The translations under genes and the position numbers were made by a program. A stretch of DNA of 64,000 bases, taken from assembly GCA_019454045.1 (NCBI GenBank), contig SKCR01032772.1:1-64000 (forward strand). Reading direction: 5' to 3'. This document shows positions 6,405 through 35,981 of this stretch, in pieces; position 1 is the first letter of the stretch, and each line of letters opens with the position of its first letter. The notes beneath the pieces are model-generated. The model made no database searches and was not told the DNA's origin. It worked only from the letters and a program-made list of their open reading frames with translations. The DNA is from Zanthoxylum bungeanum. Its lineage: Eukaryota; Streptophyta; Magnoliopsida; Sapindales; Rutaceae.

Positions 6405-7506
6405 TGAAAATTCGATTTTACACAAAGGTTCTGACCCTATGCGAAATTATAAACAATAAGCAGGACAAGTCCTGTTACTGTTACTATGGATGAATAACAG
6501 GCAACCACAATAACCAACAAATAAAATATGCTGCAAATACTAAACCAATAACAGGAATTAAAGCAGCAAAATAAATCAAACCACACAAAATTCAACACAA
6601 TGATTTTGGTGACGAAGTGGAAAACTCTTCCGAGTAAAAAACCACTCCGGGTATAGGCTACCACCCGAATCCACTATATAGAGAAAAACTTACAGCGATG
6701 GTCAAGACCTATGGTGGCAACTCCACCGACTCAAGTACCTCAATACTGCAAGAACTCAAGGCAACTCCTCAAGCCCGGGACCCACGGTTTTCTTCAGAAC
6801 TTCTGAAGTCTGTGAGTAGATTATATCACCAATGACGCCGGAACTCCGACTACCAAACTTCCTCCTAAAGAACTCTAAAGGATTAGGGAATTTGGGTTAA
6901 GTTGTGTTGAAGGTTTATCAACGATTTGATTTCACCAAACAAATAGAAGACATGAGATTCAAAGAGTCTTCAAGGTGAAATCAAAGAGAGTTGAAAGTTT
7001 TGAGAGTATTTGGCTCAAGAGAAATATGCTTCAACTAATGAGAATGGCGGCTAAGGGTTATATTTATAGGTAGGGTGAAAAACTAGGGTTTTGCAGGCCA
7101 AAAACGCGTTCAGATGCGACTAGCGTTCGAACGGTTTATCGAACGCTTCACGAACGCGTGCCCACTAGAAAGACTCGTTCGAACGGCCATCGAACGCACA
7201 ACGAACGGATGATCTCTGGAATGATCTCGTTCGAACCCACCAAGAACGTGACTCGAACATTTGCTCTCTGGAATGCTCCCGTTCGAACCCAATAAAGAAC
7301 GTGCCACTAACGCCACACGTTCGAACCCAAAAACGAACGCAACACTAACGCCAATCGTTCGAACACTGCAACGAACGCACCACGAACGCATGTCTGATGC
7401 ACATCAGCCAGAAACCAGTCCAATTGCACAAAGATCTTCAAGAAAGATTACAACTCAATTGAACTTGTTTTGTCACGGACACATGCCAATAAAAATGGAA
7501 CTCACA
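6405..7506 (-). repeat. TR-GAG 3' LTR
   Basis: 1102 bp, nearly identical to 11127-12227. In sense it starts TGTGAGTTCC and ends AATTTTCA. It contains a cluster of CGTTCGAAC-type motifs at about 7107-7392 upstream of a TATA-like box at 7071-7079. Confidence 0.9.
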
Positions 7507-7518
7507 ATCTCCCCCTTT
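7507..7518 (-). other. TR-GAG polypurine tract
   Basis: Reverse complement is AAAGGGGGAGAT, directly abutting the 3' LTR; expected primer site for plus-strand DNA synthesis. Confidence 0.75.
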
Positions 7519-9207
7519 GACATTCTGTGACAAAACACTACCTAATACAAAGACTACGGTAATAGACCCAACAAAGCAAATAGTCAACTGTCAACCATCA
7601 AAACAGTGACTTATTACAAATGGACTCGATCTAACACCTAACAAAGTAGTCTTGAAAATAATGTCACCGCAGCAACATACATGCTACCTGAAACATCCAC
7701 AAACAACAATATACCGTGAAAAGCATTGGGATAATCAAATAGAACATAAAGCAGGTAAAAATCTCATGCATGTACAAGTAGAAATCTCTCTCCCCCTTAA
7801 TCTTAACTCCCCTTAAAATGGAGATATCGAAAGGATATTCTACGGCTCCCTCCTATATATTAAGGCTCTCCCCCTTAATATATTACTCTTCCCATTTTTG
7901 TCACGAAATGACAAAGGGTAAAAGAAATAGGAAAAATAACATGAGAACATGAGACACCACATGCAAGAGCATAAACAAACATGAATTACTCCCCCTCACT
8001 AACAGGTTCATACAGTTAGCAAAATCACATACGGGAAGTAAACCACAACTCAGAAAAGTGCACAGGAAAGAAAAAAAATTGGTATGCAATGACATGAAGC
8101 ACACACAAGCACATACTGAGATAAATGAAAATCCTGTCAAAAACTGACTGAAACAGCATTTCAAGCTGATACAATGATACCCAGTCAGTATTCAGCTGTT
8201 TATGACATGAAACAATATGCATCATTTTAAAAGTGGCTAAATACAACACTTATGCATATGACATAAACACCAAAGCATATAAAGCACTTGCGAGGAAAAT
8301 AAAGTGCATAACGAATCAAGGCTTAAGACCTTATTTTATGAGCTGGATACAGCCACAGAAATCCATCTCTAAACAAACCAAGTCCACAAAATATGTGTTC
8401 AAACCCAGCACCACTAGGACCTGAAAATAAGCAACATTGGTTGCATGCTATAATATTTACCCCATAAATATCATGAGCTCATATTTAACAACTCTTTCGA
8501 GTGAAGGGTTTTTGCTCTTATCTTTTGAATTTGGCCATTTTGGCTATTTTGCACTTGAGTCTCATTTTTTTTTTAAGAAAAAAATTTATTTCTTTTTACT
8601 TTTGCAAAAGGGGATTGCAATGTCAACTAGTCAAAGGTCACACTATTGAGCAAACAAGATATGATAGAAATCAGATTGCTATTCCAAAAACTCATACATG
8701 CGACCAAACCTTAACAAAATAAAAACGTGTATGTGAAGGTGCAAGCACAGGATATACCAAAGGTTTTTATCACACACACTCATGTATATAGAGCATCAAG
8801 AAAAATAAAAGCATATTATACATGCATAATCATATATCCTACATATCAGGATCACATGCACATGCTATTCATGCTCTAACAAGCCGTAAAAGAAAATAAT
8901 TTTTTTCTTTTTCATTTTCTATATTTTATTTTTTGAATTTTTCAAATTTTAACAAATAAAAAAAACATAAACAGGCTTGTAAAACATCCAATGGTACGTG
9001 GAGTTGTATCCCGAGTGCAGATCATACTACCGTCCATTCAGAATCGGCTATGAAATTTATGTCCGGGTTTCCATCCTATATACCAAGGGATATATAACAA
9101 AAACAAGACACACACACACACCCATATGCTGTGAAAAACAAAATAAACGTGCAAAAATATAAAACACACGCACACACACATGCAATGGGAAAATAAAAAT
9201 GCATATT
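7519..9207 (-). other. TR-GAG 3' non-coding interior
   Basis: 1.7 kb between gag and the polypurine tract with no sustained open frame. It holds AC-rich microsatellite stretches (9108-9121, 9168-9180), CT-rich runs near 7790-7885, and the 92-nt structured module at 8993-9084. No trace of protease, integrase or RT was recognised. Confidence 0.6.
8993..9084 (-). other. 92-nt putative structured RNA module, TR-GAG copy
   Basis: In element sense (minus strand) this 92-nt segment aligns without gaps to the module found twice in each LTR of the Ty3 element, differing from the copy at 16591 at six positions. It keeps the terminal GGTAT/GTACC pairing, CCCG/CGGG, TCATA/TATGA and GCCG/CGGT helices. 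It lies about 120 nt downstream of the gag stop, where a 3'-UTR signal would act. Its function is unknown. Confidence 0.7.
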
Positions 9208-11085
9208 TTAAGCAGAGTTACACCGAAGTGCACTCTCATCATGTCCATCAGGACACGCAGAAGAAGATGGAAATTCATCTTGCTTCTTCACCCAAACCTT
9301 TTTAGGAATCTCTTTCACATGAGTATTCCCAGACAACAAATCAAGTTTCTCACTCAGAAATTGAGCTTGTTTGGTTAGTGCAGAAACTTGAGACATTAGA
9401 TTTAAGGAATCAAATCTAGAAGACACACTCTTAGGCCTCTTCTTTTGCTTGTGCAACATGAAGCACTTAGGCCTAATATGTCCAGCCTTGCCACAGTTGT
9501 GGCACACAGGCACAAACCTCGTATGAGAGCGAGGTTTACCCACAATACCTCTAGATTGAGGTTGGGAAACATGACGAGGAATAACATGAGGAGAAACATG
9601 ACTACACATAACATGTTTCTTACCTAAGTCACGTTTAACTGCAACAGACACAGCTTTGGAAGAAGAAGCCCTATTGCAGTTAGGCTCAGAAATAATACCT
9701 AACATACGGTCCACTTTTTTATTTCCACTAGAAAATGCGGACAATTGGGTTCTAGCATTTTCAAGTTCGGTCTCTAATATTTGGACTCTATTAACTAGGC
9801 ATATGTTCCTCTCCTCTAGGTCATCAACAATCAAAAGGCTTTGCTCAAATTTAGCTTGAGCTTCATTCTTTTCTAGCTCTACAATTTTCAGCCTTTTACT
9901 GACCTCTATATTAGTCTTCTTAATAGCTAAACTCTCATTAAACAGTTCAGCAAAAGCTACCTGAAGACTATCCTCATCAACAGACTCATCAAGAGAGACT
10001 TCAGAATCAACATCATTAACAATAATCTCTCTCTCATCAGTCACACTAGCAGTAAATGCTATATAATTGTTCTTGTCTTTAGGAGACTCATTAGAGGTAT
10101 AGCCACCTTCTGAATCACTGGGAGAGGCAGCCATGGCTTTCTTGCCTTTAGCCCTGAGATATGTGGGACACTCAGATCTAACGTGCCCATATCCTTCACA
10201 CTCATGGCACTGGACATCACGGGATCTACTACCCCTATCCTCTCTAGACTCTTTCTTGCTATACCTCATTTATCTAGGCATAACCTCCTTATCTTTGTTA
10301 CTGCTATGGCCACTCTTCTTAAGTTTAAGAAATTTCTTAAACTTTTTTGCAAACAAGGCCAAATCACGATCCGTGATGGTATCATCATCACCAGACGAAT
10401 CATGCATAACTTCCTTAGCGATTTTCATCGTAAACGTTTTTGGCTCTCTATAACCAGGAAGCTTTTTCTCATAAACCTGCAGTTTTCCTACGAGTTCATC
10501 TAAATTAAGCTGATCGAGGTCATTACTTTCCTCGATGGCGGTGATTTTGGGTAGGAACTTATCAGGTAGGGATCTCAGGATTTTCCTAACTATCCTACTG
10601 GTAGGAATAGTCTCACCTAGGTTAAAACTAGAGTTAACAATATCGTTAATCCCAGCATAAAACTCATCAAAGGTCTCATCTTCTTTCATTCTGGCGACCT
10701 CAAACCTAGTAGCTAAATCCTGGAGTCTATTATTTTTAACAGACAATGTGCCCTCATGCACAGTCTGCAGGATGTCCCAAGCATCCTTGGCTATCTCACA
10801 CATTGAGATTCTCCTAAACTCAGCAGAACACACAGCACCATGTATGACATTAACAGCCTTGCTGTTCCTATTGCTAGCATCAAATTCGTCCTTGGTCCAG
10901 GTCAATTTATCTTTAGGGGAAGAAACCCTATCAACAACAACAACGGGAGGTTTCCACCCGTGTTCAACAGACATCCAGACCCTCTCATCTAAGGACTTAA
11001 GGAACGCCTTCATGCGAACCTTCCAATGTAAATATTTCGTGCCATCAAAAAATGGCGGACAATTCAAGGGTTGACTACGTTCCAT
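9208..11085 (-). pseudogene. gag: TR-GAG gag with one in-frame stop
   Basis: One reading frame of 626 codons is interrupted only by TAA at 10272-10270, which is followed at once by ATG. The upstream part (271 aa, from 11085) has the plant copia-type gag N-terminus: a PPFFDG motif, then KYLHWKVRMKAFL, then WMSVEHGW. The downstream part (353 aa) has two CCHC zinc knuckles (CHECEGYGHVRSEC near residue 20; CHNCGKAGHIRPKC near residue 255) separated by an acidic region and a likely coiled coil. Gag would form the particle and bind the element's RNA. The stop may be a simple nonsense mutation, or the ATG right after it may allow reinitiation and a separate nucleocapsid part; sequence alone cannot decide. 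Confidence 0.85.
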
Positions 11086-11112
11086 AGCTAATAGGTCAAG
11101 GACCGAGTTCAG

Positions 11113-11124
11113 GCTCTGATACCA
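11113..11124 (-). other. TR-GAG primer-binding site
   Basis: Reverse complement reads TGGTATCAGAGC, the usual plant primer-binding site complementary to initiator tRNA-Met, two bases downstream of the 5' LTR end. Confidence 0.9.
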
Positions 11125-11126
11125 AT

Positions 11127-12227
11127 TGAAAATTCGATTTTACACAAAGGTTCTGACCCTATGCGGAATTATAAACAATAAGCAGGACAAGTCCTGTTAC
11201 TGTTACTATGGATGAATAACAGGCAACCACAATAACCAACAAATAAAATATGCTGCAAATACTAAACCAATAACATGAATTAAAGTAGCAAATTAAATCA
11301 AACCACACAAAATTCAACGCAATGATTTTGGTGACGAAGTGGAAAACTCTTCCGAGTAAAAAACCACTCCGGGTATAGGCTACCACCCGAATCCACTATA
11401 TAGAAAAAAACTTACAGTGATGATCAAGACCTATGGTGGCAACTCCACCGACTCAAGTACCTCAATACTGTAAGAACTCAAGGCAACTCCTCAAGCCCGC
11501 GACCCACGGTTTTCTTCAGAACCTCTGAAGTCTCTGAGTAGATTATATCACCAATGACGCCTGAACTCTGACTACCAAACTTCCTCCTAAAGAACTCTAA
11601 AGGATTAGGGAATTTGGGTTAAGTTGTGTTGAAGGTTTATCAAAGATTTGATTTCACCAAACAAATAGAAGACATGAGATTCAAAGAGTCTTCAAGGTGA
11701 AATCAAGAGAGTTGAAAGCTTTGAGAGTATTTGGCTCAAGAGAAATATGCTTCAACTAATGAGAATGGCGGCTAAGGGTTATATTTATAGGTAGGGTGAA
11801 AAACTAGGGTTTTGCAGGCCAAAAACGCGTTCAGATGCGACTGGCGTTCGAACGGTTTATCGAACGCTTCACGAACGCGTGCCCACTGGAAAGACTCGTT
11901 CGAACGGCCATCGAACGCACAACGAACGGATGCTCTCTGGAATGATCTCGTTCGAACCCACCAAGAACGTGACTCAAACATTTGCTCTCTGGAATGCTCC
12001 CGTTCGAACCCAATAAAGAACGTGCCACTAACTCCACACGTTCGAACCCAAAAACGAACGCAGCACTAACGCCAATCGTTCGAACACTGCAACGAACGCA
12101 CCACGAATGCATGTCTGATGCACATCAGCCAGAAACCAGTCCAATTGCACAAAGATCTTCAAGAAAGATTACAACTCAATTGAACTTGTTTTGTCACGGA
12201 CACATGCCAATAAAAATGGAACTCACA
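11127..12227 (-). repeat. TR-GAG 5' LTR
   Basis: 1101 bp, the partner of 6405-7506 with only scattered substitutions, so the insertion is recent relative to the copia host. It carries the CGTTCGAAC motif cluster (about 11828-12115) upstream of the TATA-like box. Confidence 0.9.
11782..11790 (-). promoter_or_regulatory. TATA-like box of TR-GAG 5' LTR
   Basis: Reverse complement CTATAAATA. The CGTTCGAAC-rich block lies about 40-330 bp upstream in the sense direction, an enhancer-like position. The same box is at 7071-7079 in the other LTR. Confidence 0.55.
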
Positions 12228-15310: not shown

Positions 15311-15968
15311 TGTAGGCATTGCATTTTCGCATGTGAAACCCGATGATGAGTCTCATTTGGAGGCACTACCTTTTGAGTCATGAAAGCCGCGGGAAACGGA
15401 TATCGGAAGGGGAAATTCAGGATAAACAAGCTCACTGTCTTCGTTGGTGCTGCGTTCGTTACTTCGTTCGAACCTCGTGCAGATTGCGGACGTTCGTGCC
15501 GCGTGCGATGAGGCGTTCGAACGGAGCCGGTAATTCTGGTTTTGCTGCTAGCCTCACACCCCAGCCCATTTAGCTCCCCAAAGCCCATAAAACACATCCC
15601 AAATTAAATAAATAAATATTAAATTAAATATTAAACATTAAAATAAAACATTTAAACCATTTACCAATTAAAATAACAATTACCAACTTAAATAAAATCA
15701 TGCCTAATATAAATGAATCAAATATATTTATACTAAAACTAAAAATAAGATTTGCCTAATTAAAATCAATCTTAACCAATTAAAGCCAATCATATATTTG
15801 ACTTCCTAATTCAATAAGATATCCACCAATTTAAAAGTTTTGACTTCCTAATCTAAACCAAATTTGTCCCCCCCTCAATCTTTGACTTTCCTTGCTAAAC
15901 ACCAAATCATATCCCTCTTAATGACAAAATCCCTTCCTTGTGACACAAGGCCAAACCCTACCTCTCCT

Positions 15969-15977
15969 CTATATAAA
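15969..15977 (+). promoter_or_regulatory. TATA box of Ty3 5' LTR
   Basis: CTATATAAA in a pyrimidine-rich context; the same box is at 26934-26942 in the 3' LTR. A start about 30 bp downstream would put the 92-nt modules, the hairpins and the 53-bp array in the transcript. Confidence 0.6.
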
Positions 15978-16590
15978 CATGACTAAACCAAGGCCATCCC
16001 GCCTCTCCAATCTCTCTAGCTTATACACCCAATTCACACAAGAATTATAGCAAGAAATCCTAGACACCAAAACAATCCCTCTCACACCACCGAAAATCAC
16101 ACCAAAACAATCCCTAACCACCACCGAAAATCCTCCCCAAACAGTCCCCAAAATCCAAAAACAGTAACACAAAAAAACAGCATAGATAACCTTAAGAATA
16201 ATCATATATAATTGCATTAAAAAACCCACACAAACTTGGAATAGGTTATTGAAAACGTTGAAACAGGTAGCCCGTGCGGGAGCGAGCAGCAAAACAGGAG
16301 CAAATAGGAGCAGAACGGAGTTCGAATCGTAAGCAAAGCAGCGAAGCAGTGAGCTAGGACGTTGAACCAGTGGACCAGAAAGTTGCGGAGCCTTACCCCC
16401 CTTTCGATTTCCGTGGAACGCGAGTCCGAGAGACGGCTTAAAAGGTTAGACCTGAGGGTATCTTTCACACTTATTCTCATTTTACTTTCTGGTCATTTAT
16501 TTTGATTATATTTTCTGTATTTGTGGTATATGTTGTGTGTATGATGTATGTTGTGGGTATTGGATGAATGAGAGATGTGTCAACTCTCGC

Positions 16591-16682
16591 GGTATATCGG
16601 ATGGAAACCCGGACATAAATTTCATAGCCGATTCCGAATGGACGGTAATATGATCTGTACTCGGGCCACAACTCCACGTACC
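16591..16682 (+). other. 92-nt putative structured RNA module, 5' LTR copy 1
   Basis: Proposed fold (module numbering 1-92): 1-5 with 88-92; 12-15 with 83-86; 18-21 (CCCG) with 72-75 (CGGG); 32-36 (TCATA) with 59-63 (TATGA); 37-40 (GCCG) with 53-56 (CGGT); an ATT/AAT apical stem. Compared with copy 2, pairs 21/72, 32/63 and 34/61 change on both sides while remaining paired. Likely present in the element's RNA, since it lies downstream of the LTR TATA box. Confidence 0.7.
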
Positions 16683-16779
16683 GCTTGGGCAAACGGCACA
16701 TCTTTCTTTCGTTGTGTTGCTCTTGTTTATTTAGTTTTCTTACTTAATTCAATATGTCGTTAGTTATGCATGATTCAAC

Positions 16780-17230
16780 CAGGCGCATGGGCTTAGTGAG
16801 TTAGTCCAAAGGTCCTCCATTTAGGAGACAAAGAGCCGAAAAGGCCACCTTCGTGACACTACTTCGCCGTGCCGGTTGATGTATGTTCGGTTGGACGCTA
16901 GATACGTTCAATCGGGCATACTTAGTTTAATATTATTATTATCTTTTTTTCGTATGAGTCAATCGAGCGCATGGGCTTAGTAAGTGTGACGTGAAATCCC
17001 CTATGGGGAGAGGCTAAAAGCCCTTTACCACGATGCTTTGCCGCGCCGGTTGATGTGTGTTCAGATTGGACGTAAGATGTGTTCAATCGGGCATACTTGG
17101 TTGACATGATTGGTTCTATTCTTGTATGTGTAATGTGATGCGCATGAGCTTAGTATGTTGGTCTAAAGGTCCTCTCTTTGAGAGATCAAGAGCCCCAAAA
17201 GGTCACCTTTATGCAGTAGTACTTCGCCGC
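16780..17230 (+). repeat. Three degenerate tandem repeats with conserved hairpins in 5' LTR
   Basis: Units begin at GCGCATG (about 16781, 16964, 17139). Each holds a short hairpin pair whose sequence varies but pairing persists: CTCC/GGAG (16815-16827), CCCC/GGGG (16998-17008), CTCTC/GAGAG (17172-17184), each followed by an A-loop hairpin (GCC/GGC at 16835-16845; GGCT/AGCC at 17012-17022; a weaker CC/GG in unit 3). Units 1 and 2 also end in a 17-bp hairpin (16881-16921; 17055-17096). Confidence 0.75.
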
Positions 17231-17282
17231 GCCCCTTATTTTCTGTTTACGTATTACATCCCATTTTCATGCATCAGGTCCG

Positions 17283-17550
17283 TGTCCGTTCGAACGCGTT
17301 TGCAAACGCAACTCGAACGCGCATACATTTTGCCTTATCATGCATCAGGTCTCCTTCCGTTCGAACGCGTTTACGAACGCTACTCGAACGTGAGCATTCT
17401 GTTTCATTTCCGTTCGAACGCGTTTACGAACGCTACTCGAACGTGAGCATTCTGTTTCATTTCCGTTCGAACGCGTTTACGAACGCTACACGAACGTGAG
17501 CATTCTGTTTCATTTCCGTTCGAACGCGTTTACGAACGCTACACGAACGT
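17283..17550 (+). repeat. 53-bp tandem array with CGTTCGAACG motifs, 5' LTR
   Basis: GTTCGAACG occurs at 17359, 17412, 17465 and 17518, exactly 53 bp apart; a diverged first unit at 17287 is 72 bp upstream. Each unit carries CGTTCGAACGCGTTTACGAA plus a CGAACGTG. The array is open in two frames by chance and encodes nothing recognisable. Confidence 0.9.
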
Positions 17551-17684
17551 GCACACACTGAACTGAGTCTGTCTTATTATATTCATGCATATTTGCCTAT
17601 TGGTTGATCTTTCTTTTGTAAATGTGTCAATGTATCACCATTCATATGCTTGTGTCATGATAACATTTGAGTATTATTTCTTGC

Positions 17685-17776
17685 GGTATATCGGATGGAA
17701 ACCCAGACGTAAATTCCGTAGCCGATTCCGAATGGACGGTAGTGCGGTCTGTACTTGGGCTACAATTCCACGTACC
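17685..17776 (+). other. 92-nt putative structured RNA module, 5' LTR copy 2
   Basis: Same length and boundaries as copy 1, with 11 differences, all transitions. Helices read CCCA/TGGG, CCGTA/TGCGG and GCCG/CGGT. U-G pairing at positions 35/60 and 25/66 is possible only in plus-strand RNA. Confidence 0.7.
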
Positions 17777-18224
17777 ACTTGGAAAAGTGCCCATATGTGT
17801 GCTTGTATGGTTACCATGTATGCTTGTATGGTTTATGTGTGCTTGTGTTTTCCTGAATGTGATGTACAAAGTTGTATGTTCGTTGCTATCTTGATATATG
17901 TTAAGCATGCAATCTTATATATGAAATACATGTATATTTAGGCGCATATTTTATTTTATATATGTGAATTTAGAAGCATGATACCCTTAGAAATATTGTT
18001 ACTTCAGCTTGTTTAAATTATTATATAAATCTTTTCATTACAAGTGACATAAGTAAGGGACTATTCCGAACCCAACGGTTTGAGGTCTTCCCTTGCGAGG
18101 GGTGAGTGCGGCCTTAAATCTTTGTCCCGGGTCACACCGGGTGGCGACTCCATGTTATGTAATCCTTCCCAAACTAGGCCGCGAGCCTAGGAACGGCGTC
18201 GCTCAGGTCCTGTGTCCCACAGTC

Positions 18225-18242
18225 TGGCGACTCCACTGGGGA
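18225..18242 (+). other. Ty3 primer-binding site
   Basis: TGGCGACTCCACTGGGGA begins three bases after the 5' LTR, the expected position and style for a plant Ty3 primer-binding site; the matching tRNA was not determined. Confidence 0.75.
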
Positions 18243-19381
18243 TGTGAGAATTGGCCCCGAAATATTGTCTTGTAATGAGTGGATTTATGTTTTAATTGGC
18301 CATGTCTATAGTGGATAAGTGAGGGTTTAATCAAGGGCACTTTAAGGCTAGGTAATGGTTTGGTGTCTTCCTTCACTCACTACCTTTCTAGAAGGAAAAG
18401 CTGTGAGGATACCTACATGACCATCTACTTGTAGCCTTTGTGATGGACTAATTTGGAGGACTCGTTGTTTATTCCTGACACCAAGCGATAAGAGCCTAAG
18501 AGGCTTGGGTACTTAAGTGAGCCTCGCTCCACCTTCCCTCTGGGGAATCTACAACGGGAAATCCATTTGACAGTCCGTCACACACCATAGCTCATTGGCA
18601 CGTACCTTAGTGTATAAAAAGGGATACGCTCACTTGGTCACTTGAACCCTTGAGTGGGGAGACCTAGTTGTGGGCTATCCTTCGCCAGTGAGAGCCTTTG
18701 TCCATACTCTTGCAAACCACCCATAGACTGGTTTATATGGTTGTTAAAGTAGCAATTATTTCCTTGAGTATGTGCTTGTGGACCATCCTCATTTGGATGC
18801 AGTTGGACTATTGTCAGAAATGCGGGCTTGCTGGGCCATTTAAACTGGGGCAAGTTCGTACTGTATGACTATTAGGCCCAAGGCTTCTGAAATGTTGATG
18901 GGCCATTATGAAAAAAATTATTATGTTGTTTGCATTATCTCCCTTCTATGCTTATGTTTGGGAACATCACCGTTTGGATCCATTTGGACCATTTGTCATG
19001 GGATATGGGCTTGTTGGGCCATTTAAACTGGGACAAGAACGTATTTCATGACTATTGGGCCAAAAGCTTCTAAGTGATTGATGGGCCACCTTGTGCTTGT
19101 TTTCGGAATATTATCATTTGGATTTAGTTGGGCTCTTTGCCGTAAGACATGAACTCGTTGTGCCATTTAACTGGGACGGGTTCACCCTTATGACAATGTC
19201 CCAAAAGCTTCTAAAATGATAATAGGCCGATTTGTTTGAGAATTTTATTTGATTTAATATATGTTATATATTCTTATGCATATCATGCATACATATACCC
19301 TGTTAACATCCTTGTGTCTTAAAAGACACCATAGATACCGTTTGGGTTAGAGAAGGAACCAGACTCACTAAAAGAACAAGT
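18243..19381 (+). other. Ty3 5' leader with three degenerate repeats
   Basis: Untranslated leader between primer site and gag. Three related blocks (about 18770-18905, 18950-19090, 19092-19230) share 'tttggat', 'ttgttgggccatttaa', 'ctggga' and 'aagcttct', spaced roughly 140-185 bp. No open frame of note. Confidence 0.65.
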
Positions 19382-20355
19382 ATGAGTGAATCCGATAATG
19401 AGGTGTCCCGTATGGATCAGTTAGAGAATGGTCTCGCCAAGATCACTGAACAGTTGCAGGCTTTGACTACTGCTATGGCTGGTATAGCTGGGTCTCGTGC
19501 CGGGGTTAATTCTGGGGATGTGAGGCAAGAGGAATCTCCGAACAGATTGGGGGATGATCCCCGCTTTTGATGATGATATGGCAGAGTATGCAGCAGGCAG
19601 AGTATCTGGGTCTCAGACAGAGTTGCAGAAACTTCGGGATCAGGTTGAGTCAGTTACCCGCAAGATGAGGGGTAAGAATGAGGATCTGCTGGATTATGAC
19701 ACATTGACTTTTGAGGAACAGTTGCCAGCACAGTTCAAGATGCCAGATATGGCGCTAAGTTCAACGGGAATGGGGATCCGAGGGTGCATCTCCGACAGTT
19801 TGTATCAGTCATGAGTTCAGTTGGCTTGTCTCAGCGCCAGGTGCAGAAAATGTTTGGAATGTCGCTTGAAGGGGCTCCCGTGGTATGGTACCACAGTTTG
19901 GAGAAGAAGGTGAAGAAGATTGGAGGGAGTTAGCTGATGCCTTCCTGAAACAGTATGTCACTGACTTGGAGATCGACTTGTCACTCCGTGATCTGGAGAA
20001 TGTTAAGCAGAAAGCGGAGGAGAGTTTTAAGGAGTATGTGGACCGGTGGAGGGGTCAATTATTGAAAATGCAGACTAGGCCTTCGGAGAAGGATCAGATC
20101 AAGATGATCATCAAGGGCACCAAGCCCTCCATTTATGGCAAGTTGAGGAGGATGACCTCCATGATTGCAGACTTTCGGCAGTTGAGGGAAACTGTCATGG
20201 ATATTGAGGAAGAAGAGGCCGAGAATAGAAAATTCTATGGTCTAAACAGGAGGCCCATTGGGGGAACATCGGGAACAAAGCCCGTTTCTGCTGAAGTTGC
20301 TGCTATCCGGAACAGGCAGTTTTCCAATTGGGAAGGCCCCTGTCTAAGGTGCTAG
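19382..20355 (+). pseudogene. gag: Ty3 Tat gag (frameshifted)
   Basis: Starts with ATG at 19382 (MSESDNEVSRMDQLENGLAK, coiled-coil-like). The reading frame shifts near 19560 and again near 19890. The core retrotransposon gag region appears as HLRQFVSVMSSVGLSQRQ then EGAPVVWYHSLEKK, then, in another frame, FLKQYVTDLEIDLSLRDLEN, SFKEYVDRWRGQLLKMQTRP and KGTKPSIYGKLRRMTSM. This is the particle-forming protein. Three frames are needed to read it, so no full-length gag could be made from the sequence as given; some shifts may be sequencing errors. Confidence 0.85.
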
Positions 20356-21857
20356 AGAAGTTGAAGAGGCAAGGGCTTTTAAAACCCTTGGATACCAAAC
20401 CATTACCCAATCCCCTACCACCACATTTTAACCTAAGCCTTTATTGCCACTTCCACCAACAAAAAGGCCATGACACCGACAACTGCGCCCGACTCCGCCA
20501 TGAAATCCAAGACCTCATAGACTCCAAGAAAATACCCAACCCAGAAACAGAACAGCCCGATACACACAGAAACCCCTTACCTAACTACCGTGCCGTACCA
20601 CCACCAGCCTATATGATCAATTCTGGCCTTCCAGAAGACCTTGTCCTAAAATCCTTTCACCCTCAAGCCTTTTGCCTGGGAATCTGGGATAGCACTAGTG
20701 AGGATGAGTTTGAGCAGAAGGACTTTTGGCTTGATTTCTCTAGCAGCGATGAGGAGGAAGTAAGGGGAATGACACGTAGCGGTCGTTTTTATAATGATAT
20801 GGCGGAAAAGGGTAAGGAAGCTTTGACAGATGGTAGAGAAGTGGTTGAGGCTGCAGAAAATACTGAAGGGGATATAGTGCTGAGGCAATTGAGGAAGACT
20901 AGAGCACAAGTCAGTATCTGGGAACTATTATGTGCATCTCGGGAGCATAGACAGGCTATGGTTGAGGCCTTGAGCAAGATCGTGGTACCGGAGGATGCCA
21001 ACCCCGCAATGTTTGTTGGGTCAGTTCAGAAGGAAGCTTTGCAGATATCCTTTTCTGAGGATGATCTCCCACCGGAGGGGAGGAATCATAATAGGCCTCT
21101 ATTTATCAGGGCCGAAGTGAGGGGCAAGAAAACTTCATGTGTGATGGTGGATGACGGTTCGTCCATCAATGTGTGCCCATTGAAAATTCTGGCAAGATTG
21201 GGTATGAAAGCAACAGACTTGGACCCCTCCAGTATGACTATTAAAGCTTATGATGACAGTAAGCGAGGAGTTGAGGGTACCTTTGTGGCTATGGTCAAAG
21301 TAGGGCCGATTGAAGATGAGGTCGAGTTCACAGTGCTGGACATCCCAGCCACTTTTGCCTTATTGCTGGGAAGGCCTTGGTTTCACAAGCTTGGGGGCGT
21401 GCCTTCCACTTTGCATCAGATGATCAGATTCCCGTATGAGGGAGAGATTGTTACCATCCGGGCTGAGTTAGATAATGCCGTGGCTGCCTTGGAGATACTA
21501 CCTTTCACAAGGTTCCAGGTATCAGCCACTTTTGAGGAGTGGGTGGATCCTAGGGTGGCTAGGATTATGGAGAAGATGAAGTTTGAGCCGGGTAAAGGTT
21601 CAAAGTTGCCGGATTTCAGAGGACAGACTACTCGGAAGGGTTTGGGGTACAAATCTGACGAAGAAAAGCCGAAGGTCAAGAAAAAGGGCCTGAAACTGAT
21701 GGAGTGCTTTGTGAAAGCTTCAGGGTATCAAGGAGAGCCTGAACCTGTGAAAGTCAATGGGATTGTGGTGCCTGGGTTTGAGATCTTCCAGGATTTGTTG
21801 GGTGAGAAACCATTGACTGGGAAGCTGTGGAAACAGAGATTTGGGAGGAGGAATTGA
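20328..21857 (+). pseudogene. Ty3 Tat gag tail and aspartic protease
   Basis: One 509-codon frame. Near residues 45-65 a CHFHQQKGHDTDNC motif is the divergent zinc-knuckle-like motif of Tat gag-pro. The protease follows about residue 275 with VMVDDGSSINVCP (DDGSS is the usual Tat variant of D-S/T-G) and the partner hydrophobic-hydrophobic-G block FALLLGRPWFHKLGG near residue 345. Near residue 420 MEKMKFEPGKG precedes a glycine-rich G-patch-like segment. The frame overlaps gag upstream by 28 bp and RT downstream by 31 bp in other frames; whether these are programmed shifts or indels is unclear. Confidence 0.85.
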
Positions 21858-22903
21858 TGAAGTTAGAGAGCCTGACTCTGGAAGATGAGAAGCCTGAAGA
21901 AGACCTGATTGCAGAGGAAGAAGTGTCTATTGATGATGAAGACATTTACCTTCCTGACTTATTTGAATGTACTCCCGCATTATCCAATAATAAAGACATT
22001 TCTTTTGCTTACTTGCCTGAGTCATTTCCATTCACTCTGCATGAATCCAGCATATTTGACATCAGTTCAGCCAGAACTATTGCATTTAACTTGGGCACAC
22101 TTGAGAACCCCAAAGAAATTTTGATTGCAAGTGAAGTAACCTCCGAAGAGAGGGAGAAACTAGAACAAGTGTTGGTCAGATATGCCAAAGTATTTGCTTG
22201 GTCTTATGAGGACATGCCCGGGGTAGACAGAAACATTGCCCAGCACACAATACCAACTTATCCGAATATGAGGCCAGTAAAGCAGAAACTTCGACGGATG
22301 AGACCAGAATGGGCTGAGAAAGTCAGAGAGGAAGTTAAGAAGCAGATAGATGTGGGGTTCCTGGAAGTGGTAAAATACCCTGAATGGTTGGCTAACATAG
22401 TACCGGTACCGAAGAAAGATGGGAAAGTCAGAATGTGTGTAGACTACAGGGATCTCAATAAAGCTTGTCCGAAAGATGATTTCCCTTTGCCGCATATAGA
22501 TGTTCTGGTTGACAGTGCGGCTTTGTCTGCTATGTATTCATTTGCGGATGGATTTTCAGGGTACAATCAGGTTCTCATGGCTGAGGAAGATAAACACAAG
22601 ACTGCATTTGTTACCGAGTGGGGTACCTATTGTTACAAGGTGATGCCGTTTGGGCTTAAGAATGCAGGAGCTACTTATCAGCGGATGGCCACTACACTCT
22701 TCCATGACTTGATGCACAAAGAGATTGAGGTGTATGTGGATGACATGATGGTGAAATCAGAAACGAGAGTTGGGCATATTGAGGCATTGGAAAGGTTCCT
22801 TCAGAGAGTTGACAGATATAACCTGCGGCTTAATCCCAAGAAATGTGTGTTTGGGGTGACATCAGGGAAATTGCTTGGTCATACAGTGGGAATGGCGGAA
22901 TAG
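21827..22903 (+). pseudogene. Ty3 Tat reverse transcriptase
   Basis: 358-codon frame. RT blocks appear in order: WLANIVPVPKKDGKVRMCVD, YRDLNKACPKDDFPLPHID, FADGFSGYNQVLMAEEDKHK, TAFVTEWGTYCYKVMPFGLK, NAGATYQRM, and the catalytic YVDDMMVKS near residue 302. It copies the element RNA to DNA inside the particle. The frame is lost about 22860 by a +1 or -1 shift, after which RNase H continues in the next frame. Confidence 0.9.
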
Positions 22904-23605
22904 AGGTAGACTCCGAAAAGATCAAGGCAATCACAGAAATGCCTGCACCAAAGACAGAAAAGGAAGTCAGAGCATTCTTGGGAAAGATTCAGTACATCAG
23001 TCGGTTTATTGCCAAGTTGACATCAGTATGTGAGCCTATCTTCAAACTATTGAGAAAAGATCAGCCGGTGAGATGGAATGAACAGTGTCAGACCGCCTTC
23101 GACAGAATCAGAGAGTACTTGGTAAAGCCTCCTGTATTGAAGCCTCCGAGGCCGGGTAGACCTTTGATATTGTATTTGGCTATAGAATCAGAAGCATTGG
23201 GGGGTATGATGGTACAGGCAGATGAGGCAGGGGTAGAACATGCAGTTTATTATCTGAGTAAGAAGCTGCTTCCGTATGAGGCTCGGTATCAGGAAGTTGA
23301 GAAGATCTGTCTTGCAGTGGTATGGGCTTCCAGAAAGTTGCGACATTACTTCCAGTCTTACAAGATCCAGGTGGTGGCAAAGGAGAATCCTCTGAAATAT
23401 CTGCATTCAGTGCCTTCACTAGTGGGAAAACTGGGCCGATGGTTGGTATTGTTGACAGAGTTTGACATTGAGTATATCACCTCCAAGGTGATCAAGGGAC
23501 GAGCAGTAGCGGAGTTTCTGGCATTGCAACCTGTTGAGGGGGATCAGTATAAGTTTGAGTTTCCAGATGAAGAGATCCAAGCAATAACAGTTCAGAGATG
23601 GAAGA
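22843..23605 (+). pseudogene. Ty3 Tat first RNase H (probably inactive)
   Basis: Continues pol in a new frame: EVRAFLGKIQYISRFI, then TAFDRIREYLVKPPVLKPP and LILYLAIESEALGGMMVQ, YLSKKLLPYEARYQEVEK and LRHYFQSYKIQVV. The first catalytic aspartate of Ty3 RNase H (normally Y-x-D-A-S) is replaced in YLAIESEALGG. Loss of catalytic residues from this domain after gain of a second RNase H is known for Tat elements. Confidence 0.8.
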
Positions 23606-24068
23606 TGTATTTCGACGGAGCAGTGAATTACAAGGGAGCCGGAATTGGGATCTGTGATAGTAACCCGAGGGAGAGACTTTGCCTTTGGCTAAGAGGTTGA
23701 CATTCAGAGTGACTAATAACATGGCTGAGTATGAAGCATGTGCTTTTGGCCTGACAGCATTGATAGCCTTGAAGGCCGGGAGTGTGGAAATCTACGGAGA
23801 TTCTATGTTAGTAGTCCAGCAGATGCGAGGAGAATGGGAATTGAAGGAAGAACGGTTGAGGCCTTATCTGTTTCACCTCAGAAAATTGGCACAGGGTATC
23901 CCCGAGTGTAAGTTTCAGCACCTACCGAGAGAAGAGAATCAGATGGCAGACGCATTGGCTACACTAGCAGCGACTTGGGAAAATCCAGAGAAGTTAGTGA
24001 TGAGACCATTGATACTGACAACAGCAAGTAAACCTGCTTATGAGATAGAAAGAAGTTCTGGAAGTTGA
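23606..24068 (+). pseudogene. Archaeal-type second RNase H (aRNH)
   Basis: Starts as MYFDGAVNYKGAGIGI in one frame and continues after a shift near 23680 as RVTNNMAEYEACAFGLTALI, VEIYGDSMLVVQQMRG and ENQMADALATLA. The four acidic positions (FDG, AEYEA, YGDS, MADAL) are all present, so this domain has its catalytic set and probably supplies RNA removal for the element. Placement before integrase is diagnostic of the Tat lineage. About 100 bp of broken frame separates it from integrase. Confidence 0.88.
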
Positions 24069-24170
24069 GGTTGACGATGGTAAGCCTTGGTATTATGACA
24101 TTCAGAGATATCTGGAACATGGTGAATTCCCGGAGGGGCGGGCAGAAAAGACAGAATAGCCATTCAGAAG

Positions 24171-25331
24171 TTGGCTTCCCAGTATGTGACTTTGAGAGGG
24201 GAACTGTACAAGAGGCAGGCAAACGGCATTCAGTTGAAATGTTTGAGAAAAGAAGAAGCTCAGAAAGTGATGGAAGAGGTACATGCCGGGGTATGTGGTC
24301 CGCACATGAATGGGCTGAACTTGTCCCGCAAGATAGTGAGACAGGGGTTTTATTGGTCAACCATGGAGACAGACTGCGCGAAGATGGTAAAGCACTGTCA
24401 TGACTGTCAAGCACACGGTAATTTGAATCACTTACCGCACACAGAATTGCACGGGCTGTCAGAGCCATGGCCGTTCTCAGCATGGGGGATTGACATGATC
24501 GGGGAAATTCGACCGAATGCATCTAATGGGCATCGCTTCATAGTAGTAGCAGTGGATTACTTCTCAAAGTGGGTGGAAGCCGAATCCTTCCGTAATGTTA
24601 CAGCGAAGCAGATGGCAAAGTTCATAGCTCGGAACCTCATTTGTCGGTATGGTATGCCGCATCATGTAGTGACAGACAACGGGGTCCAGTTTCAAGGAGA
24701 GACGAAGGCAATGTTACAGAGGCATGGGATAGGCCACCACAAGTCATCACCGTACAGGCCGCAGGCAAATGGGGCAGTTGAGGCAGCCAACAAGACTATA
24801 AAGACAATTTTAGCCAAGATGACAGAAAATTGTAGAGATTGGGCCGAGAAGTTACCGTATGCTTTGTGGGGGTACAGAACGTCGGTCAGAACGGCCACAG
24901 GTGCAACACCTTACTCCTTGGTCTACGGGATGGAAGCAGTATTACCAGTAGAAGTGGAAATACAGTCCCTGAGGGTATTAGCAGAGGCAGAATTACCGGA
25001 ACAGGAATGGGCCGCACAGAGATTTGATCAGTTAGCACTGTTGGATGAGAAGAGAACGAAGTCTTTGTATCACATGCAGTTATATCAGAAGAGACTAGCC
25101 CGGGCATTCAACAAGAAAGTACGTCCCACAAAGATCAGAAAGGGTGATTTGGTACTTAAGCAGTCGAGGCCGTCGACGACAGATCCGAGAGGCAAATTCA
25201 GGCCTAACTGGGAAGGACCTTACATCGTTCAGAAAGTCCTGGGAAATGGAGCAGTGAAGCTATCAGACTTGGAAGGAAATGAATTCACAGAACCAATCAA
25301 TGTCGACAGGTTGAAGTTGTACTTTGCTTGA
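24171..25331 (+). CDS. Ty3 Tat integrase
   Basis: Open frame of 386 codons covering a whole integrase: HHCC zinc region (H-H near residues 38-46, then HCHDC near 76-80), catalytic core with GIDMIG (D about 107), VTDNGVQF (D about 168) and GAVEAANK (E about 204, D-35-E spacing). A C-terminal part follows with KVRPTKIRKGDLVL and a GKFRPNWEGPYIV motif of the GPF/Y type. It ends IN...DRLKLYFA. Integrase joins the element DNA to the host chromosome. It is the only pol domain here readable without interruption, but it is cut off from upstream pol by a stop or shift between 24068 and 24171. Confidence 0.88.
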   Translation: MASQYVTLRGELYKRQANGIQLKCLRKEEAQKVMEEVHAGVCGPHMNGLNLSRKIVRQGFYWSTMETDCAKMVKHCHDCQAHGNLNHLPHTELHGLSEPWPFSAWGIDMIGEIRPNASNGHRFIVVAVDYFSKWVEAESFRNVTAKQMAKFIARNLICRYGMPHHVVTDNGVQFQGETKAMLQRHGIGHHKSSPYRPQANGAVEAANKTIKTILAKMTENCRDWAEKLPYALWGYRTSVRTATGATPYSLVYGMEAVLPVEVEIQSLRVLAEAELPEQEWAAQRFDQLALLDEKRTKSLYHMQLYQKRLARAFNKKVRPTKIRKGDLVLKQSRPSTTDPRGKFRPNWEGPYIVQKVLGNGAVKLSDLEGNEFTEPINVDRLKLYFA

Positions 25332-25569: not shown

Positions 25570-26160
25570 GGAGGGCGAAGCCCATATCGACTGGGGAGCG
25601 AGGCTCCACATACATCATCATGTTAGCTTGGGGCGAAGCCCATATCGGCTGAGGAGCGAAGCTCCACATCATCATTTTCGGGATGCGTCCCAGGGTCGAG
25701 GCCCATATTTTGTCAGCGGTATTGGGATGCGTCCCAGGGTCGAGGCCCCCGTTGTCGGTTGCAGCTATTGGGATGCGTCCCAGGATCGAGGTCCACTGCA
25801 TCATCATTTTCGGGATGCGTCCCAGGGTCGAGGCCCACATTTTGTCAGCGGTATTGGGATGCGTCCCAGGGTCGAGGCCCCCGTTGTCGGTTGCAACTAT
25901 TGGGATGCGTCCCAGGTCGAGGCCCACATTTTGTCAGTGGTATTGGGATGCGTCCCAGGGTCGAGGCCCCCGTTGTCGGTTGCAGCTATTGGGATGCGTC
26001 CCAGGGTCGAGGCCCACATTATTGTCAGCGGTATTGGGATGCGTCCCAGGGTCGAGGCCCCCGTTGTCGGTTGCAGCTATTGGGATGCGTCCCAGGTTCG
26101 AGGCCCACATCATCAGCAGCATCGAGATGCGTCTCAGGATCGAGGTCCACTGCAGTATCA
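25570..26160 (+). repeat. Ty3 3'-UTR tandem array, 44/46-bp alternating units
   Basis: GGGATGCGTCCCAGG starts at 25680, 25724, 25770, 25812, 25856, 25902, 25945, 25991, 26036 and 26082, with spacing alternating mainly 44 and 46. Two monomer types (tails 'gttgtcggttgcagctatt' and 'attttgtcagcggtatt') alternate, so the higher-order unit is about 90 bp. GGGATGCGTCCC is itself an inverted repeat. Diverged units flank it. Tat elements often carry such 3' arrays. Proteins predicted across it in several frames are artefacts. Confidence 0.9.
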
Positions 26161-26268: not shown

Positions 26269-27574
26269 TGTAGGCATTGCATTTTCGCATGTGAAACCCG
26301 ATGATGAGTCTCATTTGGAGGCACTACCTTTTGAGTCATGAAAGCCGCGGGAAACGGATATCGGAAGGGGAAATTCAGGATAAACAAGCTCACTGTCTTC
26401 GTTGGTGCTGCGTTCGTTACTTCGTTCGAACCTCGTGCAGATTGCGGACGTTCGTGCCGCGTGCGATGAGGCGTTCGAACGGAGCCGGTAATTCTGGTTT
26501 TGCTGCTAGCCTCACACCCCAGCCCATTTAGCTCCCCAAAGCCCATAAAACACATCCCAAATTAAATAAATAAATATTAATTAAATATTAAACATTAAAA
26601 TAAAACATTTAAACCATTTACCAATTAAAATAAACAATTACCAACTTAAACTAAAATCATGCCTAATATAAATGAATCAAATATATTATATACTAAAACT
26701 AAAAATAAGATTTGCCTAATTAAAATCAATCTTAACCAATTAAAGCCAATCATATATTTGACTTCCTAATTCAATAAGATATCCACCAATTAAAAGTTTT
26801 GACTTCCTAATCTAACCAAATTGTCCCCCCTCAATCTTTGACTTTCCTTGCTAACACCAATCATATCCCCTCTTAATGACAAAATCCCTTCCTTGTGACA
26901 CAAGGCCAAACCCTACCTCTCCTCTATATAAACATGACTAAACCAAGGCCATCCCCCTCTCCAATCTCTCTAGCTTATACACACAATTCACACAAGAATT
27001 ATAGCAAGAAATCCTAGACACCAAACAATCCCTCTCACACCACCGAAAATCACACCAAAACAATCCCTCTCATACCACCGAAAATCACACCAAAACAATC
27101 CCTAACCACCACCGAAAATCCTCCAAAACAGTCCCCAAAATCCCAAAAACAGTACACAAAAAAACAGCATAGATAACCTTAAGAATAATCATATATAATT
27201 GCATTAAAAAACCCACACAACTTGGAATAGGTTATTGAAAACGTTAAAACAGGTAGCCCGTGCGGGGAGCAGCAAAACAGGAGCCAAATAGGAGCAGAAC
27301 GGAGTTCGAATCGTAAGCAAAGCGGCGAAGCAGTGAGCTAGGACGTTGAACCAGTGGACCAGAAAGTTGCGGAGCCTTACCCCCCTTTCGATTTCCGTGG
27401 AACGCGAGTCCGAGAGACGGCTTAAAAGGTTAGACCTGAGGGTATCTTTCACACTTATTCTCATTTTACTTTCTGGTCATTTATTTTGATTATATTTTCT
27501 GTATTTGTGGTATATGTTGTGTGTATGATGTATGTTGTGGGTATTGGATGAATGAGAGATGTGTCAACTCTCGC

Positions 27575-27666
27575 GGTATATCGGATGGAAACCCGGACAT
27601 AAATTTCATAGCCGATTCCGAATGGACGGTAGTATGATCTGTACTCGGGCCACAACTCCACGTACC
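27575..27666 (+). other. 92-nt module, 3' LTR copy 1
   Basis: Identical to 16591-16682 except position 58 (G instead of A). Confidence 0.7.
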
Positions 27667-28269
27667 GCTTGGGCAAACGGCACTTTCTTTCTTTCGTTGT
27701 GTTGCTCTTGTTTATTTAGTTTTCTTACTTAAATTCAATACGTCGTTAGTTATGCATGATTCAACCAGGCGCATGGGCTTAGTGAGTTAGTCCAAAGGTC
27801 CTCCATTTAGGAGACAAAGAGCCGAAAAGGCCACCTTCGTGACACTACTTCGCCGTGCCGGTTGATGTATGTTCGGTTGGACGCTAGATACGTTCAATCG
27901 GGCATACTTAGTTTAATATTATTATTATCTTTATTTTCGTATGAGTCAATCGAGCGCATGGGCTTAGTAAGTGTGACGGAAATCCCCTATGGGGAGAGGC
28001 TAAAAGCCCTTTACCACGATGCTTTGCCGCGCCGGTTGATGTGTGTTCAGATTGGACGTAAGATGTGTTCAATCGGGCATACTTGGTTGACATGATTGGT
28101 TCTATTCTTGTATGTGTAATGTGATGCGCATGAGCTTAGTATGTTGGTCTAAAGGTCCTCTCTTTGAGAGATCAAGAGCCCCAAAAGGTCACCTTTATGG
28201 CAGTACTTCGCCGCGCCCCTTATTTTCTGTTTACGTATTACATCCCATTTTCATGCATCAGGTCCGTGT

Positions 28270-28535
28270 CCGTTCGAACGCGTTTGCAAACGCAACTCGA
28301 ACGCGCATACATTTTGCCTTATCATGCATCAGGTCTCCTTTCCGTTCGAACGCGTTTACGAACGCTACTCGAACGTGAGCATTCTGTTTCATTTCCGTTC
28401 GAACGCGTTTACGAACGCTACTCGAACGTGAGCATTCTGTTTCATTTCCGTTCGAACGCGTTTACGAACGCTACACGAACGTGAGCATTCTGTTTCATTT
28501 CCGTTCGAACGCGTTTACGAACGCTGCACGAACGT
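28270..28535 (+). repeat. 53-bp tandem array, 3' LTR
   Basis: GTTCGAACG at 28344, 28397, 28450 and 28503 (53-bp spacing), with the diverged first unit at 28272; matches the 5' LTR array. Confidence 0.9.
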
Positions 28536-28669
28536 GCACACACTGAACTGAGTCTGTCTTATTATATTCATGCATATTTGCCTATTGGTTGATCTTTCTT
28601 TTGTAAATGTGTCAATGTATCACCATTCATATGCTTGTGTCATGATAACATTTGAGTATTATTTCTTGC

Positions 28670-28761
28670 GGTATATCGGATGGAAACCCAGACGTAAATT
28701 CCGTAGCCGATTCCGAATGGACGGTAGTGCGGTCTGTACTTGGGCTACAATTCCACGTACC
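28670..28761 (+). other. 92-nt module, 3' LTR copy 2
   Basis: Identical to 17685-17776. Confidence 0.7.
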
Positions 28762-29204
28762 ACTTGGAAAAGTGCCCATATGTGTGCTTGTATGGTTACC
28801 ATGTATGCTTGTATGGTTAGTATGTGTGCTTGTGTTTTCCTGAATGTGATGTACAAAGTTGTATGTTCGTTGCTATCTTGATATATGTTAAGCATGCAAT
28901 TTTATATATGAAATACATGTATATTTAGGCGCATATTTTATTTTATATATGTGAATTTAGAAGCATGATACCCTTAGAAATAGTTGTTACTTCAGCTTGT
29001 TTAAATTATTATATAAATTTTCATTACAAGTGACATAAGTAAGGGACTATTCCGAACCCAACGGTTTGAGGTCTTCCCTTGCGGGGTGAGTGCGGCCTTA
29101 AATCTTTGTCCCGGGTCACACCGGGTGGCGACTCCATGTTATGTAATCCTTCCCAAACTAGGCCGCGAGCCTAGGAACGGCGTCGCTCAGGTCTGTGTCC
29201 CACA

Positions 29205-30563: not shown

Positions 30564-30566
30564 GTT

Positions 30567-30584
30567 TGGCGCCCACCGTGGGGC
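30567..30584 (+). other. LARD primer-binding site
   Basis: TGGCGCCCACCGTGGGGC, a common plant Ty3-type primer-binding site, three bases after the 5' LTR. Confidence 0.85.
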
Positions 30585-35964: not shown

Positions 35965-35981
35965 GAGAGTAGGGGACAAAC
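35965..35981 (+). other. LARD polypurine tract
   Basis: GAGAGTAGGGGACAAAC directly before the 3' LTR. Confidence 0.7.

What the first reader, a model, noticed from the sequence alone, without database searches (positions are those of the whole stretch)
16591..17776. 92-nt module with compensatory base changes, shared by two unrelated retrotransposon families
Seen: five ungapped 92-nt copies (16591-16682, 17685-17776, 27575-27666, 28670-28761 and, on the minus strand, 8993-9084). The first four are two per LTR of a Ty3 Tat element; the fifth is downstream of gag in a gag-only element with copia-type gag, in sense orientation. Copies 1 and 2 of one LTR differ at 11 positions, all transitions. 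In the proposed fold six of these make three double exchanges: 21/72 G-C to A-T, 32/63 T-A to C-G, 34/61 A-T to G-C. 35/60 and 25/66 become U-G, allowed only in sense RNA. The termini pair GGTAT with GTACC, matching the homology edges. Inference: a conserved RNA element (packaging, export, dimerisation, translation or processing) exchanged between, or needed by, elements that share machinery. I know of no description of it.
Basis: partly seen in the sequence, partly recalled or inferred. Interest (0 to 1): 0.88.

Follow-up and report, generated by a model that had tools for sequence, protein, structure and literature searches.

The report
RNA hairpin shared by retrotransposon families
A 92-base RNA hairpin, some of whose paired bases have changed together during evolution, sits in two unrelated families of plant jumping genes and in other sequences with different surroundings, which suggests a small RNA part traded between them, with a job still to be found.

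Summary
In detail: five ungapped 92-nt copies, two in each LTR of a Ty3/Tat element and one downstream of gag in a gag-only, Sirevirus-like copia element. Searching proteins with antisense translations gave 36 further copies in short, unnamed ENA contigs, fully readable at 38-57 of 92 columns.

Edges hold: module peptides are 77% and 84% identical, flanks 13-24%. Changes mostly respect the fold: 511 of 524 fully readable cells pair, and 34/61 is G-C or A-U in 24 of 24 readable rows. With a fold predicted from one copy alone, random transitions give the window pattern with P about 3e-4.

The copia copy equals one ENA copy at 53 of 53 readable columns though their flanks do not match, which supports exchange. 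The two Gag proteins are of different families, so a host partner (RNA export or expression) is the best guess. Function is inferred, not shown. Against: ordinary stability, no double change in the outer stem, copies 2, 4 and 5 predicted to misfold in context, few independent events. The host genome could not be searched.

The parts
16591..16682 (+). module copy 1, in the 5' LTR of the Tat element, LTR offset 1281, downstream of a TATA box
17685..17776 (+). module copy 2, same LTR, 1094 nt further on
27575..27666 (+). module copy 3, in the 3' LTR, 91 of 92 identical to copy 1
28670..28761 (+). module copy 4, in the 3' LTR, identical to copy 2
8993..9084 (-). module copy 5, in sense orientation, 123 nt downstream of the stop that ends the last gag stretch of the gag-only copia element
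15311..18221 (+). 5' LTR of the Tat element (TG...CA); TATA-like sequence at 15970
26269..29204 (+). 3' LTR of the Tat element; aligned to the 5' LTR (nearly its whole length) with 11 mismatches and 69 gap columns in 2951
19870..25328 (+). Tat coding remains in several frames: gag PF03732, RT PF00078, RNase H PF17919 and PF17917, second RNase H PF13456, integrase PF17921 and PF00665; protease PF13650 only below Pfam's cut-off
11127..12227 (-). 5' LTR of the gag-only copia element
6405..7506 (-). 3' LTR of the gag-only copia element, 97.8% identical to the 5' LTR; ATCCT flanks both outer ends
9208..11139 (-). copia-type gag in two stop-to-stop stretches (PF14223, then a zinc knuckle); the first runs a few bases into the LTR end because it is counted from stop to stop
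7509..7996 (-). four AGGGGGAG tracts, the last beginning 10 nt before the 3' LTR
   Evidence: position read

Best explanation
The module is a cis-acting structured RNA element that works in the sense transcript of LTR retrotransposons. It folds as one long hairpin with internal loops (central helix 32-40/53-63, second helix 18-22/71-75, closing helix 1-5/88-92). Three loops (14-17, 28-31, 46-49) hardly vary, as expected of a protein-binding RNA. It passes between element families as a cassette, most simply by reverse-transcriptase template switching. Since the families carrying it have different Gag proteins, the partner is most likely a host RNA-binding protein. The leading guess is that it helps full-length RNA leave the nucleus, or escape decay and be translated, as transport elements of animal retroelements do. 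Shown by computation: family, edges, pairing changes in the central and second helix, one module in unlike contexts. Inferred: action as RNA, template switching, host partner, export. Export in particular I put at about 0.3.
For: In the fold of copy 3 alone, 9 of the 10 changes to copy 2 lie in stems; no pair breaks and three are double exchanges. In 200,000 draws of 10 random transitions both together have P 2.75e-4; with the five-copy consensus fold (7 of 10 in stems) P 2.1e-4. Among 20 ENA copies of one frame, 34/61 is G-C in 15 and A-U in 5; with four window copies 24 of 24 pair. Over 40 rows 511 of 524 fully readable cells pair, against 23-57% for six slid structures; 13 do not, against a shuffle mean of 20.7 and minimum of 15 in 2000. 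Sharp edges. Several flank contexts. Copy 5 equals P0003 at 53 of 53 readable columns while their flanks do not resemble each other (4426 and 3553 of 5000 shuffles score as high). Loops: 1 of 89, 0 of 107 and 0 of 67 readable cells depart from the commonest base in 14-17, 28-31 and 46-49. Both window elements carry it in sense, downstream of TATA boxes. Gag families differ.
Against: Folding energy is unremarkable (z -1.14, -0.93, -0.76, -0.64 for copies 1, 2, 3, 5). With 100-300 nt of context copies 1 and 3 keep the fold (mean pair probability 0.84-0.85), but copies 2 and 4 (0.24-0.37) and copy 5 (0.20-0.42) do not, and for these three the antisense strand keeps the equivalent pairs better (0.43-0.66). 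The outer stem has no double exchange, and three rows break it (P0005, P0007, P0015). Counting also partly readable cells, of 1160 row-pair cells 567 certainly pair, 17 certainly do not, 552 are undecided and 24 have no residue; six of the 17 are in the central helix (P0006, P0012, P0018, P0023, P0034, P0036). Unpaired columns as a whole vary more than paired ones (68 of 760 against 81 of 1493 cells). On a tree built without columns 34 and 61 each changes twice, one change is co-located, and random placement reaches that in 1732 of 20,000; 32/63 and 35/60 show no co-located change. So independent double events are few. No functional data.
Confidence: 0.5

Rival explanations
1. Gag-facing RNA signal: packaging or dimerisation of genomic RNA, kept by each family separately or borrowed so that RNAs are cross-packaged.
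For: R-U5 leader position in the Tat element, and a gag-only element whose RNA must be packaged. Cross-packaging would also allow exchange by template switching.
Against: The two Gag proteins belong to different families, so one RNA would have to suit both. Copy 5 lies near the middle of its element, not in the leader.
Confidence: 0.2
2. Translation element in a very long leader (ribosome landing or shunting), or a 3' translation enhancer.
For: In the Tat element two copies lie between the TATA box and the first recognised gag stretch, nearly 4 kb (15970 to 19870).
Against: In the gag-only element the module follows gag, and no open stretch of 150 aa or more lies between it and the 3' LTR.
Confidence: 0.15
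3. A small mobile hairpin that inserts into other elements and does nothing for them.
For: Sharp edges at an inverted repeat (GGTAT/GTACC) and several flank contexts.
Against: No target-site duplication or poly-A seen by eye around copies 1, 2 or 5. Double exchanges in the inner helices are not needed for a DNA transposon's ends.
Confidence: 0.08
4. Unconstrained sequence spread by recombination; the transitions are decay of methylated cytosines.
For: All changes between copies 1 and 2 are transitions, and 5 of the 10 copy-3/copy-2 differences touch a CpG. Seventeen cells certainly do not pair.
Against: Decay alone does not explain the pairing (P 2.75e-4), a conserved module between diverged flanks, or 24 of 24 pairing at 34/61.
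Confidence: 0.06
5. The conserved thing is a peptide read in one of the open frames.
For: The first antisense frame is open in all five window copies, and a search with it found 20 proteins.
Against: Only 4 of the 11 copy-1/copy-2 changes fall at third codon positions of that frame (counted by hand). P0020 and P0021 appear to change frame inside the module. The second antisense frame has a stop in copies 2 and 4, the sense frame one in copy 5. All three frames found homologues, which a real reading frame would not predict.
Confidence: 0.01

Closest known systems
RNA transport elements of animal retroelements: RTE of mouse IAP and MTE of musD (PMC12786077, passages); CTE of simian retroviruses (recalled)
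   Same: A structured cis RNA in retroelement genomic RNA that serves unspliced transcripts through host export proteins. A provirus that gained a transport element by recombination with another virus group is described (SERV-K/MER11, PMC11379458, abstract).
   Different: No Rfam match. Export activity is not shown here. [quoted passage not shown] Here the sharing crosses Ty3 and Ty1.
Sirevirus conserved non-coding motifs (PMC2829016; abstract, outline and Results sections 6 and 9 seen)
   Same: Conserved non-coding signals in plant copia elements; the gag-only element has the multiple AGGGGGAG tracts and palindromic LTR boxes.
   Different: Those are polypurine tracts, palindromic boxes, an inverted repeat at the PPT/LTR junction and LTR-end signals; a 92-nt hairpin shared with a Ty3 element is not in the parts that I saw.
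Retrozymes, plant retroelements with hammerhead ribozymes (PMC4918200, search listing only)
   Same: A folded RNA inside plant retroelements.
   Different: No ribozyme match at gathering score in the window or at E up to 5 in 15970-18250.
Cassandra elements with 5S RNA (title seen in the reference list of PMC12786077)
   Same: An RNA domain embedded in a plant retroelement.
   Different: No 5S match at gathering score and no tRNA here.

Membership tests
CTE/RTE-like RNA transport element | mediates nuclear export of unspliced RNA | not testable with these tools
   needs a cell assay
CTE/RTE-like RNA transport element | conserved structured RNA in the sense transcript | tested here: inconclusive
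   pairing changes support a structure; stability is ordinary and context predictions disagree between copies; no transcript data
CTE/RTE-like RNA transport element | match to a described family | tested here: not met
   no Rfam match at gathering score in the window; two chance-level matches outside the module at E up to 5 in 15970-18250 (copy 5 not scanned at that threshold)
Retroviral-type packaging or dimerisation signal | binds the element's own Gag, usually in the leader | tested here: inconclusive
   leader position for copies 1 and 2, not for copy 5; binding not testable
Self-cleaving ribozyme | match to a known ribozyme family | tested here: not met
Plant microRNA precursor | about 21 nt of nearly continuous duplex (recalled) | tested here: not met
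   no consensus helix exceeds 5 pairs without a bulge or loop
MITE or other DNA transposon | terminal inverted repeats with target-site duplication | tested here: not met
   5-nt imperfect inverted ends, no duplication seen by eye at copies 1, 2 or 5
Ty3/gypsy Tat lineage (host of copies 1-4) | second, archaeal-type RNase H next to integrase (recalled) | tested here: met
   PF13456 at E 4.9e-20 in 23664-24065, before the integrase stretch; best solved relatives are RNases H
Sirevirus (host of copy 5) | several AGGGGGAG tracts, the terminal one 10 bp upstream of the 3' LTR | tested here: met
   four tracts in 7509-7996; last begins at 7516, LTR at 7506; criterion from PMC2829016 section 6
Sirevirus (host of copy 5) | palindromic LTR boxes with a CGG-CCG core upstream of the TATA box | tested here: inconclusive
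   palindromic CGTTCGAACG boxes, six per LTR at up to one mismatch, but no CGG-CCG core; the paper lists one such exception, Tnd-1

The most novel reading that the evidence does not exclude
A portable, host-facing RNA transport or expression element that plant LTR retrotransposons trade across the Ty3/Ty1 divide, the first of its kind in plants: elements that differ in their proteins share one key to the same host door.
Probability: 0.3. Interest if true: 0.9.

Novelty: new variant of a known kind. Interest (0 to 1): 0.72.

Why it matters
How plant retrotransposon RNA leaves the nucleus is, by a 2025 review, not directly studied (PMC12786077, passage). A compact, conserved RNA with natural variants that differ by paired changes gives a handle: fish with it for the host protein, and compare the natural variants. 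It would also show that regulatory parts move between superfamilies that are normally treated as separate lineages.

Tried and rejected
Rfam at gathering score on the window: no match; at E up to 5 on 15970-18250: two chance-level matches outside the module. tRNA or tmRNA: none. DNA pattern scans of bacterial and archaeal genomes (two) and of viral contigs (one): nothing, as expected for plant DNA. Coding, microRNA and MITE readings rejected (see rivals and membership test). A degenerate pattern for the longer shared palindrome unit found nothing, not even the known copies, because I wrote it badly; it is no evidence. Covariation on a tree was weak as a formal test.

Limits of the ENA copies: they are known only as translations, so 38-57 of 92 columns are fully readable, and some columns become readable only when the codon is unusual (for example columns 10, 21, 39), which adds mismatches. 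I masked the frame-shifted parts of P0020 (columns 1-20) and P0021 (columns 75-92) from then on, left P0020 and P0021 out of the edge and flank counts, left P0001 out of all counts, and dropped copy 4 as identical to copy 2. P0011 at 19/74 and three other certain non-pairs are absent, which counts only fully readable cells; one search adds them. Rows are not independent (for example P0017 and P0018). The organism of the window and of the ENA contigs is unknown to me; that it is a plant I take from the kinds of element present.

Full report
What is there. The window holds nested retroelements of plant kinds. A Ty3 element (LTRs 15311-18221 and 26269-29204) has coding remains on the plus strand: gag, RT, RNase H, a second archaeal-type RNase H and integrase, with a weak protease below cut-off; the second RNase H marks the Tat lineage (recalled). 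A gag-only element on the minus strand (LTRs 12227-11127 and 7506-6405, 97.8% identical, ATCCT at both outer ends) has a copia-type gag and a zinc knuckle and four AGGGGGAG tracts, the last beginning 10 nt before the 3' LTR, as described for Sireviruses (PMC2829016 section 6). Five copies of a 92-nt module lie at the stated places: two per Tat LTR, downstream of a TATA-like sequence at LTR offset 660, and one 123 nt after the last gag stop of the copia element, in sense. A covariance model finds these five in the 64 kb and otherwise only the reverse strand of copy 5 at E 1.9.

More copies. The host genome could not be searched. The module happens to be open in several frames, so I searched 5.8 billion predicted proteins with its translations as bait: sense frame, 1 protein at E up to 0.01; first antisense frame, 20 at E up to 0.1; second antisense frame, 16 at E up to 0.1. 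All are from short ENA contigs. The longest-contig lengths listed for the two antisense searches do not coincide, so they appear to be different contigs. These 36 copies are fully readable at 38-57 of 92 columns.

Edges. In the first frame (21 rows) mean pairwise peptide identity is 0.77 inside the module and 0.22 and 0.14 on the two sides; in the second (19 rows) it is 0.84 inside and 0.24 and 0.13 outside. The first two residues outside on the sense 3' side are intermediate (0.65 and 0.43 in the first frame). By flank similarity above a shuffle threshold, single linkage gives a group around Tat copy 1, a group around Tat copy 2, a group of 13 rows joined to no window copy, the copia copy alone, and singletons. 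So the module sits in at least four contexts.

Fold. The five-copy consensus is one hairpin of 29 pairs. With the structure predicted from copy 3 alone, 9 of 10 changes to copy 2 lie in stems and none breaks a pair: three double exchanges (21/72, 32/63, 34/61) and three one-sided changes that leave G-U (35/60, 25/66, 13/77). Random placement of 10 transitions reaches no broken pair with at least three doubles with P 2.75e-4, and no broken pair alone with P 0.03. In the ENA copies 34/61 is G-C in 15 of 20 and A-U in 5 of 20, and 32/63 shows C-G, U-A and the U-G intermediate (11, 3 and 4 of 18 readable rows, window copies included). In 40 rows 511 of 524 fully readable cells pair; six slid structures reach 23-57%; no shuffle of 2000 has as few unpaired cells. 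One-sided departures that leave a G-U in sense RNA (14 cells) outnumber those that leave A-C, which would be fine only in antisense RNA (7 cells). This favours the sense strand, modestly. Loops 14-17, 28-31 and 46-49 hardly vary.

Results against. Energies are close to shuffled sequence (z -0.64 to -1.14); with 6 nt more on each side z is -1.96, -0.58 and -1.41 for copies 1, 2 and 5. With 100-300 nt of context copies 1 and 3 keep the fold, copies 2, 4 and 5 largely lose the outer helices while the 32-40 helix is partly kept, and for these three the antisense strand keeps the equivalent pairs better than the sense strand. The outer stem has no double exchange and is broken in P0005, P0007 and P0015. 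Counting partly readable cells too, 17 cells certainly do not pair against 567 that certainly do, with 552 undecided; six of the 17 lie in the central helix. Unpaired columns as a whole vary more than paired ones (68 of 760 against 81 of 1493 cells), and other loops vary freely (for example 17 of 82 cells in 6-8). On a tree without the two columns, 34 and 61 change twice each with one change co-located, reached at random in 1732 of 20,000; the remaining changes lie close to the root, so placing them is uncertain. For 32/63 and 35/60 no change is co-located.

Exchange. The copia copy is identical to P0003 at all 53 readable columns and differs from copy 3 at 5 of 92. The flanks of P0003 do not resemble those of the copia copy (4426 and 3553 of 5000 shuffles score as well). 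Its 3' flank resembles that of Tat copy 1 (32 of 5000), its 5' flank does not (782 of 5000) but strongly resembles that of P0021 (0 of 5000), whose 5' flank resembles that of copy 1 (27 of 5000). Weak resemblances also appear between copy 5 and copy 1 on the 3' side (75 of 5000), copy 5 and copy 2 on the 5' side (65 of 5000), and P0003 and copy 2 on the 5' side (84 of 5000), among 18 comparisons. The plainest reading is that a module of this version moved between a Tat copy-1-type context and the copia element, in either direction, with edges near the base of the hairpin. A second shared part exists: CGTTCGAACG boxes, 12 in the copia LTRs and 14 in the Tat LTRs at up to one mismatch. Units of about 34 columns from the Tat R-U5 cluster match the copia LTR at 91% in reverse orientation, and the boxes near the Tat LTR start match it at 78-82% in the same orientation. 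So this second part occurs in both orientations, as a DNA element may, while the 92-nt module is in sense in both elements. With two elements this is only suggestive.

What it does. A structure kept by paired changes in transcribed, apparently non-coding sequence points to RNA. Two families with different Gag proteins using one RNA point to a host partner. The best analogues are transport elements of animal retroelements (PMC12786077 passages), and gain of such an element by recombination is described for a primate provirus (PMC11379458 abstract). Packaging, translation and plain parasitism remain possible (rivals).

Novelty. No match in Rfam, and eight literature searches listed nothing that describes such a module; of the papers listed I opened three, in part, and saw the rest as listings. 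The kind (structured cis RNA of retroelements) is known; this family, in plants and across the Ty3/Ty1 divide, appears new.

Noticed in passing
16770-17240 and 27756-28224: A second repeated unit, three diverged copies per Tat LTR, with a small hairpin whose arms seem by eye to change together. Folding z-scores are -0.02, -2.16 and -1.07. The leader may be an array of RNA modules.
   Followed up: partly
7124-7365, 11845-12086, 15465-15523, 17287-17526, 26423-26481, 28271-28511: Palindromic CGTTCGAACG boxes in the LTRs of both the Tat and the copia element, 26 at up to one mismatch against 0.41 expected; longer units alike in either orientation.
   Followed up: partly
29922-36281: A third LTR-like pair (300-nt repeats 96% alike, 6060 nt apart) with 93-nt and about 134-nt tandem repeats inside and no copy of the module.
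   Followed up: no
25660-26150: Tandem repeat of a GGGATGCGTCCCAGGGTCGAGGCC-type unit shortly before the 3' LTR of the Tat element, open in several frames.
   Followed up: no
44363-44657: Short tandem repeat with spacings in multiples of 3, inside a 228-aa open frame without Pfam match at E up to 0.001.
   Followed up: no
39525-40118: Part of an amino acid transporter gene, PF01490.
   Followed up: no
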